Below are positions 19,104-38,443 of a stretch of DNA of 64,000 nt, one piece after another. Position numbers and translations under genes: made by a program. The stretch covers positions 62,001-126,000 of IMG/VR virus record IMGVR_UViG_3300045541_000131; one strand, 5' to 3'. The stretch's first letter is position 1. Each line of letters begins with the position of its first letter. The DNA comes from a virus. The notes beneath the pieces are model-generated. The model was not told the origin of the DNA. It made no database searches and was given only the letters and a program-made list of their open reading frames with translations.

Positions 19104-19305
19104 ACTTAACTGGAACTTTCGCATAAATTGGGTAGGAAACGATCACATTCTAATTGCTTACAAAAAACAAGACAATGATGAATGGGACGAGTTTTTACTT
19201 ACTGTACGAGAATATACTGAATGGATGAGTTTATTGCAAGATTTTAATTCTGCATTTCACGATCGTATTGAACAACAACTTCTTAACTCTTATTTAAATG
19301 GCTAA
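19093..19305 (+). CDS. Hypothetical protein, 70 aa
   Basis: ATG 19093 (MKSKLNWNFRI) is chosen; the frame is open upstream only through the previous gene's basic tail. The protein is rich in Trp/Asp/Glu (NDEWDEFLLTVREYTEWM) and helical at its end. It overlaps the 5' nuclease gene by eight bases. Function unknown. Confidence 0.5.
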   Translation: MKSKLNWNFRINWVGNDHILIAYKKQDNDEWDEFLLTVREYTEWMSLLQDFNSAFHDRIEQQLLNSYLNG

Positions 19306-20284
19306 AATGTATCTTCTAGTAGACGCCGCTAACATGTTCTTTCGTGCCCGTCATGTGGTACGAGGAGAGGACGCTGAAACTAAAGTTGGTATGGCATACC
19401 ATATTATGTTCAACAGCATTAACAAAGTATGGCGTGATTTTAAAGGTAGTCACGTTGTGGTCTGTCTCGAAGGCCGCAGTTGGCGTAAGGATGTCTACGA
19501 AGGCTACAAGCGTAATCGAGCCGATGCTCGTGCTGCACTTAGTCCAAAGGAAGCAGAAGAAGATAAAATCTTCTGGCAAGCATTCGATGAACTCAAAGAA
19601 TATCTCACTGCTAAAACAAATTGCACGGTACTTCGGCATGACCGTTGCGAGGCTGATGATTTTATTGCTCGTTGGATTCATAATCATCCCGACGATAATC
19701 ATGTTATTGTAAGTAGCGACAGCGACTTTTATCAACTATTGGCTCCTAATGTCAGGCAATATAATGGCATTACTAAACAGCTAATCACTGTCGAAGGTGT
19801 CTTTGATGAAAAAGGCAAACGAGTCTTAGATAAGAAAACCAAGGAACCCTTGCCAGCACCTGATCCTCAGTGGCTGCTATTTGAAAAATGTATGCGCGGT
19901 GATACTACTGACAATATATTCAGTGCTTATCCCGGTGTGCGTGAAAAGGGCAGTAAGAACAAGGTTGGACTTCGCGAAGCATTTGCTGACAGGGATACCA
20001 AAGGATACAATTGGAACAACATGATGCTACAGCGTTGGGTTGACCACGAAGGTATTGAGCATCGTGTCAGAGACAAGTATCTGTTCAATAAACAATTAAT
20101 TGACTTGACTGAACAGCCCGAAGATATTAAACTAGCACTAGACGAAACTATTGCCACTGCAACTGGCAAGACCCGTGTAAGTCAAGTCGGCTTACATTTT
20201 GTAAAGTTTTGTTCCAAATGGAATCTTGTTAATGTGGCAGACAAGATGACAGAGCATGGAGATTATCTGGGAGCGGCATACTAA
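19298..20284 (+). CDS. rnh: 5'-3' exonuclease / RNase H (T4 Rnh, FEN family)
   Basis: The 328-residue length and motifs fit T4 RNase H, which removes RNA primers and flaps from lagging-strand DNA. The N-terminal LLVDAANMFFRA gives the first metal-binding Asp, then KRNRAD, the acidic pair in RCEADDFIARW, and VSSDSDFYQLL. A later GDTTDNIFSAYPGVREKGSKNK gives the conserved GDxxDN and helix-hairpin-helix region. It probably works with gp43 and the clamp. It is coupled to the gene after it by a one-base overlap (TAATG). Confidence 0.92.
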   Translation: MAKMYLLVDAANMFFRARHVVRGEDAETKVGMAYHIMFNSINKVWRDFKGSHVVVCLEGRSWRKDVYEGYKRNRADARAALSPKEAEEDKIFWQAFDELKEYLTAKTNCTVLRHDRCEADDFIARWIHNHPDDNHVIVSSDSDFYQLLAPNVRQYNGITKQLITVEGVFDEKGKRVLDKKTKEPLPAPDPQWLLFEKCMRGDTTDNIFSAYPGVREKGSKNKVGLREAFADRDTKGYNWNNMMLQRWVDHEGIEHRVRDKYLFNKQLIDLTEQPEDIKLALDETIATATGKTRVSQVGLHFVKFCSKWNLVNVADKMTEHGDYLGAAY

Positions 20285-20751
20285 TGATTCTGGCAAAAAG
20301 CGTGATTAAAGACAAGTTTTGGATTCTTGAAGAAAATGCCAAGCGTGTTGGCATGATGAACTTCAAGGACAATAGTTATACTATTAATCTTAGGCGTAAA
20401 GATTTTACGGTAAAAGACACTACCGAACTTAAAAAGATGGGAATCGAGTTTGTAAATCGCGATCTCAAACACGGCGGCCACTTGGAAGTCATGGGTTATC
20501 CCACGGATCAAGAAGAAGTCTTTAATGTCAAGGAAATCGACGGTTATCCCACCTTTACCAAAAAAGCCGCTAGTAAAAGTACCCATGTGGCGGGATGGTA
20601 CGGACTAAAGTTTAAGAATGGATGGGTTTGTAGCCTATGCCCAAGACTAACTACAGTTAAAACCAACGTTCATGTTGGTCCATATAAAACTAAAATGGAA
20701 CTTAAAGTAGTACTAGGACAGCAAAAAACCGAAGATTTTGAAGATGATTAA
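20284..20751 (+). CDS. Hypothetical protein, 155 aa, downstream of rnh
   Basis: A conserved-looking soluble protein: it starts MILAKSVIKDKFWIL, has INLRRKDFTVKD, then WYGLKFKNGWVCSLCPRLTTV with a CxxC pair, and an acidic end. Proteins of similar length lie near rnh in T4-like phages, but no function is known to me. Its stop is followed by the hairpin switch at 20763. Confidence 0.6.
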   Translation: MILAKSVIKDKFWILEENAKRVGMMNFKDNSYTINLRRKDFTVKDTTELKKMGIEFVNRDLKHGGHLEVMGYPTDQEEVFNVKEIDGYPTFTKKAASKSTHVAGWYGLKFKNGWVCSLCPRLTTVKTNVHVGPYKTKMELKVVLGQQKTEDFEDD

Positions 20752-20762
20752 ATAATGCTTTA

Positions 20763-20800
20763 ATGCGTTTCTCTGATAAATACAAATAGGAGAAACGCAT
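20763..20800 (+). promoter_or_regulatory. Late promoter inside an RBS-sequestering hairpin
   Basis: ATGCGTTTCTC (20763-20773) and GAGAAACGCAT (20790-20800) form a perfect 11-base inverted repeat. The right arm contains part of the AGGAG ribosome site and the first two bases of the next ATG. The loop holds GATAAATA (20775-20782). Early read-through RNA would fold and hide the start, while RNA begun at the late promoter (about 20787) lacks the left arm. This is the logic known for T4 genes e, soc and 49. Confidence 0.7.
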
Positions 20801-21116
20801 GGCAAGACCTAAGCCTACTATACTTTTAACTCATGTAGACCCTAGCACTTATAAAAGTGAAGAAATTCTAGAAGCTGAAGCCATCTATGCAGTTTTCTAT
20901 AAAGGACGACCATTTAATCTACGCAGTCATTTGAACAGTTTACAGGATTATCCTGGTCCTAAATATAAAAAGGTCAGTTTTAGTAATCCAGGTCATGCAT
21001 TCAATTTGATGGAAAAAATGAATAAACTATTCAAGTGTCAAGACTTTAGTGTTGTTGAGCTTACCGAAGGTGCTGTGGTTAATGAGTACGAGCTGGTCAA
21101 AAAATCAGAAAAGTAA
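20799..21116 (+). CDS. Late-regulated hypothetical protein, 105 aa
   Basis: It starts MARPKPTILLTHVDPS, a pattern common in T4-like marine phage proteins of about 100 residues, and contains FYKGRPFNLRSHLNS and NLMEKMNKLFK. Function unknown. Its start codon lies in the right arm of the hairpin at 20763-20800, so translation probably needs the late transcript. A strong terminator follows. Confidence 0.7.
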   Translation: MARPKPTILLTHVDPSTYKSEEILEAEAIYAVFYKGRPFNLRSHLNSLQDYPGPKYKKVSFSNPGHAFNLMEKMNKLFKCQDFSVVELTEGAVVNEYELVKKSEK

Positions 21117-21139
21117 ACTGATCCTCCAAGAGATACAAA

Positions 21140-21168
21140 AGTCAGTGGATATTCCGCTGACTTTTTTT
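21140..21168 (+). terminator. Strong Rho-independent terminator
   Basis: A 10-pair stem (21140-21149 with 21153-21162, one G-T wobble) closes a TAT loop, followed by T up to 21168. The next ATG is at 21169, again directly after the T run. Confidence 0.85.
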
Positions 21169-37658: not shown

Positions 37659-37696
37659 GATAAATTTATTTTGACAAGAAAATGTCAATGCAGTTC

Positions 37697-37703
37697 ATAA
37701 ATA
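37697..37703. promoter_or_regulatory. Bidirectional late-type elements in a divergent gap
   Basis: ATAAATA (37697-37703) on the plus strand lies five bases before ATG 37709. On the opposite strand TATTTATAT gives TATAAATA, an exact late element, though it faces the radical SAM gene at 37658 at some distance. Confidence 0.5.
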
Positions 37704-37708
37704 TTTAT

Positions 37709-38443
37709 ATGAGCGATATACTAAACGAATATGGTATCAGCAAAGAACCAATCGAATCCTTTGCTAAAAGAAATGACTTCGCTGCCAACAAGCCTTACCC
37801 ACAAAATTTAACTTCTGGCCAGGAAGTTAACAAAAGCCCGGACATTGCCTTCCTACCAATCGACTGGGAAACTGAACAAGATTGGCAGGGTATGCACGAA
37901 GAAGCTAAAAGGTTAAGCAAGCACTTTGTTCCCCATAGACATCATGAAAGTCATCGTGGATGGAGCAGTTTGTGTATTCACGGCCTAAGCAGCATTCATA
38001 CTGAAAGCAGTCATACTTATGGATTCACTGATGATACTGCGCCATGGCGTTGGACTGATGTAGCAGATTGGTGTCCGAAAATTACTGACTTCTTTAAGAA
38101 TCAATTTGATTATAAGAAGTATTTTAGAATTAGAATAATGAAGTTAGCTCCGGGCGGTTATGTAATACCACACAAAGACAGTTTGAAACAGGAAGAAAAT
38201 CATATAGGCCCTATTAATTTTGCACTGAACAATCCCGAAGGCTGTAAATTTTACATGGACAACGTGGGATACTTACCATGGCAACAAGGTCGTGCAATTA
38301 AGTTAAATTTATACAACGTTCATGCGGTTTACAATGACAGCAACGAAGATAGATATCATGTAATCATTCATGGTCATATGGGTCCAAGTTGGATGGATAG
38401 AATTTACAATAACTACAATACATGGAAAAAGGTTTATGCTTAA
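37709..38443 (+). CDS. Aspartyl/asparaginyl hydroxylase-like (2OG-Fe(II)) oxygenase
   Basis: ATG 37709 (MSDILNEYG) has no Shine-Dalgarno but lies five bases from a late-type element; an in-frame ATG at 37682 is the alternative. The 244 residues contain GGYVIPHKDS (H-x-D-type metal ligands) and YNVHAVYNDSNEDRYHVIIHG (distal His and Arg), fitting the AspH/Asp-Arg hydroxylase family. These enzymes hydroxylate side chains or small molecules. It is followed by a gene of unknown function and a radical SAM fusion, all on the plus strand. Confidence 0.72.
   Translation: MSDILNEYGISKEPIESFAKRNDFAANKPYPQNLTSGQEVNKSPDIAFLPIDWETEQDWQGMHEEAKRLSKHFVPHRHHESHRGWSSLCIHGLSSIHTESSHTYGFTDDTAPWRWTDVADWCPKITDFFKNQFDYKKYFRIRIMKLAPGGYVIPHKDSLKQEENHIGPINFALNNPEGCKFYMDNVGYLPWQQGRAIKLNLYNVHAVYNDSNEDRYHVIIHGHMGPSWMDRIYNNYNTWKKVYA

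What the first reader, a model, noticed from the sequence alone, without database searches (positions are those of the whole stretch)
20763..20800. T4-like hairpin switch with a late promoter in its loop
An 11-base perfect inverted repeat hides the ribosome site and first bases of the start codon in read-through RNA, while the late element in the loop produces an RNA without the left arm. This is the known logic of T4 e, soc and 49, and here controls an uncharacterised 105-residue gene.
Basis: partly seen in the sequence, partly recalled or inferred. Interest (0 to 1): 0.7.

Follow-up and report, generated by a model that had tools for sequence, protein, structure and literature searches.

The report
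Hairpin-gated late gene in marine phage
A virus of bacteria carries a small RNA hairpin that probably keeps one of its genes silent early in infection and is then bypassed by a late promoter sitting inside the hairpin loop; the trick is known from phage T4, but here it guards an unstudied gene and recurs, with rebuilt hairpins, in many related phages.

Summary
A perfect 11-bp inverted repeat (20763-20773/20790-20800) encloses GATAAATA (20775-20782). Its 3' arm covers most of the Shine-Dalgarno and the AU of the AUG of a 105-codon gene, and a terminator follows at 21137-21165. With T4-type geometry, late RNA starts near 20788 and loses the whole 5' arm: start-region accessibility rises from 0.09 to 0.87, as in T4 e, soc and 49 run as controls.

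The gene family (at least 599 IMG/VR matches, plus PA5oct, Paride, Phosso, Atu_ph07 and SCTP-2) almost always has TAAATA just upstream. In many lineages a matching 5' arm is rebuilt with different bases, which favours RNA pairing over a DNA operator. In the nearest long relative ATAAATA precedes portal, tail-fibre and virion genes, and that phage encodes a gp55-type late sigma; the window's own contig is a fragment lacking that region.

The logic is known (T4 e, soc, 49, I-TevI); the gene and clade are new. The gating is not universal in the family. A sharp TAAATA-N5-ATG class suggests leaderless late mRNAs. Nothing has been shown by experiment.

The parts
20763..20773 (+). 5' arm of the hairpin (ATGCGTTTCTC), present only in read-through RNA
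   Evidence: perfect complement of 20790-20800
20775..20782 (+). T4-type late promoter element GATAAATA, in the hairpin loop
   Evidence: TAAATA found within 60 nt upstream of the same gene in 84 sequences (window and relatives) used for the cluster test
20788..20788 (+). predicted late transcription start (6 nt after the element); late leader AGGAGAAACGC
   Evidence: inferred from T4 late promoter geometry; the TAAATA-N5-ATG spike fits the same spacing
20788..20792 (+). Shine-Dalgarno AGGAG, 6 nt before the ATG
20790..20800 (+). 3' arm of the hairpin (GAGAAACGCAT), covering part of the Shine-Dalgarno and AU of the start codon
20799..21116 (+). 105-residue gene of unknown function, conserved phage family
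   Evidence: no Pfam or PHROG match, no significant PDB match
21137..21165 (+). intrinsic terminator after the gene (13-bp stem, T run), predicting a late mRNA of about 380 nt
   Evidence: -17.4 kcal/mol, z -6.6
19298..20751 (+). upstream co-oriented genes (RNase H/FEN-type 5'-3' exonuclease; 155-aa protein) whose read-through RNA would carry the closed hairpin
   Evidence: no + strand terminator-like site between 18465 and 21137

Best explanation
A T4-type transcription-coupled translational switch. RNA that reads in from the upstream replication genes folds a 12-bp hairpin that closes the Shine-Dalgarno and the start codon, so the 105-residue protein is hardly made. Once the phage late sigma factor acts, RNA polymerase starts from GATAAATA inside the hairpin DNA. 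The new RNA begins near 20788 (AGGAGAAACGC-AUG), lacks the 5' arm, and is translated well until the terminator at 21137-21165. Shown: the anatomy, the predicted accessibility change, arm covariation in relatives, the promoter motif's link to late genes, and the sigma gene in close relatives. Inferred: read-through early RNA, the exact start site, and the low and high translation states.
For: Hairpin z -7.0. Accessibility of the start region 0.09 in read-through RNA, 0.87 in late RNA, 0.59 with shuffled upstream RNA (P 0.005); T4 e 0.01/0.63, soc 0.01/0.82, 49 0.07/0.59 by the same script. Relatives carry different but matching arms: L010 ATGTGTATCTCT/GGAGATACACAT, L005 TGCTGTTTTT/GAGAACAGCA, L008 TATGTTTAATCT/AGATTAAACATA, L006, L011, L013, L028 (each P<=0.02). 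In a 35-sequence group one pair is G-C 18, A-U 14, G-U 3 with no mismatch. Over 31 clusters pairing of the start region with RNA upstream of the predicted start exceeds shuffles (9 at P<=0.05, Fisher 2e-7). ATAAATA in relative G001 precedes portal (phrog_213, 9e-110), tail-fibre and virion genes. gp55-type sigma in 8 of 10 long relatives including G001. Precedent: PMC3014915, PMC2988022.
Against: No expression data. The element is GATAAATA, not TATAAATA. No gp55 match on this contig, though the contig lacks counterparts of nearly all of the first 150 kb of G001, where that gene lies. Many clusters show no significant gating (for example L019, L026, L032, L036, L070, L074; in the L060 group the start codon pairs with RNA inside the late transcript). 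Shuffle tests on related sequences are approximate.
Confidence: 0.8

Rival explanations
1. The inverted repeat is a DNA operator: a dimeric repressor binds the two half-sites flanking the late promoter and blocks it, as I-TevI does at its own late promoter.
For: The half-sites flank the promoter symmetrically in the window type; an autorepressor operator overlapping a late promoter is known for I-TevI (PMC2988022).
Against: Arm sequences differ between close relatives while staying complementary, G-U pairs are tolerated, loop length varies, the 3' arm usually ends on or beside the start codon, and in one large group both arms lie downstream of the promoter.
Confidence: 0.07
2. The hairpin is a binding site for a translational repressor (RegA-like or the 105-residue protein itself) and acts on RNA irrespective of where it starts.
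For: T4 uses such a leader hairpin for gene 43 (PMC3014915).
Against: The predicted late RNA lacks the 5' arm and does not fold stably; loop sequences are not conserved apart from the promoter element.
Confidence: 0.07
3. Chance complementarity or a by-product of A/T-rich promoter and Shine-Dalgarno sequence.
For: Perfect 11-bp repeats occur about 0.9 times per shuffled window; some relatives lack the hairpin.
Against: It is the only one with TAAATA in the loop and an ATG at its end; recurrent, covarying arms in relatives; other late-promoter genes show no median shift.
Confidence: 0.03

Closest known systems
Phage T4 soc leader hairpin
   Same: 11-bp helix from upstream RNA covering the translation start, late TAAATA in the hairpin, small gene, same accessibility signature
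   Different: Different gene: soc is an outer capsid protein, whereas this protein has no known role; different phage clade
Phage T4 e and 49 late hairpins, I-TevI, and mobE of phage Aeh1
   Same: Read-through RNA hides the ribosome site; a late promoter inside or next to the 5' arm yields RNA without it (PMC3014915, PMC2988022)
   Different: Studied by experiment there, only predicted here; here the promoter form is GATAAATA and the phage is related to the PA5oct/Atu_ph07/SCTP-2 jumbo phages rather than to Tevenvirinae
PA5oct-group homologue (EST35_0330, 63% identical)
   Same: Orthologous gene near the same RNase H-type gene, GATAAATA 27 nt upstream
   Different: The pairing there is weaker and differently built (P 0.11)

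Membership tests
T4-type hairpin-gated late gene (e, soc, 49, I-TevI) | inverted repeat that pairs upstream RNA with Shine-Dalgarno and/or start codon | tested here: met
T4-type hairpin-gated late gene (e, soc, 49, I-TevI) | late promoter placed so that its RNA lacks the 5' arm | tested here: met
   GATAAATA in loop; predicted start 20788 is downstream of the whole 5' arm; by sequence only, start not mapped
T4-type hairpin-gated late gene (e, soc, 49, I-TevI) | pairing preserved by compensatory change in relatives | tested here: met
   not in every relative
T4-type hairpin-gated late gene (e, soc, 49, I-TevI) | phage encodes a gp55-type late sigma factor | tested here: inconclusive
   absent from this 138-kb fragment; present in close relative G001 at 3.6e-79 and in 7 more
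T4-type hairpin-gated late gene (e, soc, 49, I-TevI) | gene lies in read-through RNA from upstream early or middle genes | tested here: inconclusive
   co-oriented replication genes upstream, no terminator-like site in between; no RNA data
T4-type hairpin-gated late gene (e, soc, 49, I-TevI) | read-through RNA poorly translated, late RNA well translated | not testable with these tools
   needs reporters or proteomics
DNA operator inverted repeat | conserved half-site sequence and fixed half-site spacing | tested here: not met
   half-sites and spacing vary while complementarity is kept
Rfam RNA family | match to a curated covariance model | tested here: not met
   no match up to E = 1

The most novel reading that the evidence does not exclude
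In this clade of large phages, late genes are kept silent in read-through RNA by two interchangeable devices at a gp55-type promoter: either the promoter sits exactly 5 nt before the ATG so that late mRNA is leaderless and there is no Shine-Dalgarno, or a leadered late gene carries a hairpin whose 5' arm is upstream of the start. The 105-residue gene has switched between the two (L014-L022 type versus window type) and has rebuilt its hairpin several times, so timing of this unknown protein is under strong selection.
Probability: 0.4. Interest if true: 0.65.

Novelty: new member of a known kind. Interest (0 to 1): 0.47.

Why it matters
It extends a textbook T4 regulatory trick to widespread, mostly uncultured large phages and marks one strongly conserved, unstudied protein as something these phages seem to avoid making early. 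The repeated rebuilding of the hairpin gives natural compensatory mutants, and isolates such as PA5oct and Paride carry orthologues, so timing and function can be tested directly.

Tried and rejected
Family and structure searches for the 105-residue protein: no Pfam or PHROG match for the window protein; a weak SspH match in 9 of 14 relatives (best 0.00037), not accepted as homology; no significant PDB profile or fold match; viral fold library only uncharacterised proteins. My early idea of an RNase H1 hybrid-binding domain rests on sequence impression only and was not supported by any search. Own-contig search for gp55 negative, explained by the contig being a fragment. Rfam negative. DNA-operator reading rejected on covariation and variable spacing. 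A pair count on alignment A3 failed for a length error and was replaced by the explicit arm table. Literature searches for leaderless transcripts from T4-type late promoters found no direct report among the listed papers of the held library.

Full report
What is there. The window contains ATGCGTTTCTC-TGATAAATACAAATAG-GAGAAACGCAT at 20763-20800. The arms are perfect over 11 bp, with a wobble pair as a twelfth. The 3' arm holds GAG of the AGGAG Shine-Dalgarno and the A and U of the start codon of a 105-codon gene (20799-21116). GATAAATA lies in the loop. The hairpin alone folds at -16.8 kcal/mol, z = -7.0, with no shuffle as good. Perfect 11-bp repeats are expected about once per shuffled window, but none in 60 shuffles had TAAATA in the loop, and this one also ends on an ATG. 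Downstream, a 13-bp terminator stem with a T run (21137-21165) closes the unit, so a late RNA would be about 380 nt and carry this gene alone. Upstream lie co-oriented genes, among them an RNase H/FEN-type exonuclease, with no terminator-like site on the + strand in between.

The promoter. In the nearest long relative (G001, 231 kb, home of locus L010), ATAAATA stands at short distance before portal (phrog_213, 9e-110), tail-fibre, virion structural and other genes. G001 and seven other long relatives, including PA5oct, Phosso, Atu_ph07 and SCTP-2, encode a gp55-type late sigma factor (phrog_12791). The window's own contig has no match, but it is a 138-kb fragment lacking counterparts of nearly all of G001 0-150 kb, where the sigma gene lies. 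The motif is depleted elsewhere in the window. All this fits a T4-type late promoter in the form NATAAATA.

The switch. With T4 geometry (+1 six bases after the element, from established T4 knowledge), late RNA begins at 20788: AGGAGAAACGC-AUG. Partition-function folding gives start-region accessibility 0.09 in read-through RNA, 0.87 in late RNA and 0.59 when the upstream RNA is shuffled (P 0.005). The experimentally known T4 cases e, soc and 49 gave 0.01 to 0.63, 0.01 to 0.82 and 0.07 to 0.59 with the same script; I-TevII was not significant. The published mechanism for e, soc, 49 and I-TevI is described in PMC3014915 and PMC2988022.

Comparative test. TAAATA occurs close upstream of its start in nearly all loci. 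The hairpin arms change sequence but stay complementary: ATGCGTTTCTCT/GGAGAAACGCAT in the window, ATGTGTATCTCT/GGAGATACACAT in L010, TGTGTTTTTCT/GGAGAAACACA in L006, TGCTGTTTTT/GAGAACAGCA in L005, TATGTTTAATCT/AGATTAAACATA in L008, CTACGTTG/CAACGTAG in L013, TCTGCTCAT/ATGAGCAGA in L028. In a second, large group the hairpin is ATAT(G/A)CGTA...TACG(C/T)ATAT immediately after the promoter, so that the predicted late RNA keeps only a short end of the 5' arm; its variable pair is G-C in 18, A-U in 14 and G-U in 3 sequences with no mismatch, and the loop length varies. Over 31 sequence clusters the pairing of the start region with RNA upstream of the predicted start exceeds shuffles in 9 at P<=0.05 (Fisher 2e-7). 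Over 81 distinct sequences the median accessibility is 0.36 in read-through RNA, 0.66 in late RNA and 0.52 in shuffles. Other late-promoter genes in the same genomes show no such median shift (0.44 vs 0.47, 0.52 vs 0.49, 0.44 vs 0.45). Sequence turnover with kept complementarity, variable spacing and a 3' arm tied to the start codon favour RNA pairing over a DNA operator.

Limits. Many clusters have no significant gate, and in the L060 group the start codon pairs with RNA that remains in the late transcript. Cluster tests do not remove all relatedness. Nothing is known of expression in this phage, and the start site is a prediction.

The protein. No Pfam or PHROG family matches the window protein; the AlphaFold model is fairly confident (mean pLDDT 86) but resembles no solved structure significantly, and in the viral library only uncharacterised proteins. 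The strongly conserved core is YPGPKYKKVSFSNPGHA-x-NL. Its function is open; its timing suggests a late role, or a protein harmful if made early (inference).

Leaderless class. Among TAAATA sites near starts, a spacing of exactly 5 nt is sharply favoured: 11 in the own contig against 0-2 at any other spacing, 7 in G001, and 20 in relatives, where a second broad peak at 26-31 nt comes largely from the gene family itself. With +1 six bases after the element these RNAs would start at the A of ATG. In relatives L014, L016, L018 and L020-L022 the 105-residue gene itself has this form (spacing 5; 8 in L017). An alternative is that TAAATA at this place is a translation signal; only 5'-end mapping can decide.

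Verdict. The finding is right and its interpretation is the best one. It is a new instance, in a new clade and gene, of a known regulatory kind.

Noticed in passing
whole contig G000 and relative G001; in the window e.g. 37709 (+), 48423 (-), and 29610 (-, spacing 6): TAAATA exactly 5 nt before the ATG of long ORFs (11 in own contig, 7 in G001) suggests leaderless late mRNAs without Shine-Dalgarno.
   Followed up: partly
window 37697-37709: Overlapping late elements on both strands (CATAAATATTTATATG) between divergent genes at 37688 (-) and 37709 (+): a possible bidirectional late promoter.
   Followed up: no
G000:C1:49378 (outside the window); G001:C1:54431, 83878, 89525; PA5oct 135020, 242770, 90324: Further late-promoter genes whose start region is paired with RNA upstream of the predicted late start: candidate hairpin switches.
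   Followed up: partly
window 32235-55970, mostly - strand: A long run of radical-SAM/SPASM-like proteins interleaved with other enzyme-like proteins, unusual for a phage (read from the ORF list, not searched).
   Followed up: no
L045:4950-4991, also L049 and L064: The same gene is preceded by a long, nearly perfect hairpin (TTCTGTACTACTTTAATAAATACATTAAAGCGGTACAGAA) with the late element partly inside the stem rather than in a simple loop.
   Followed up: no
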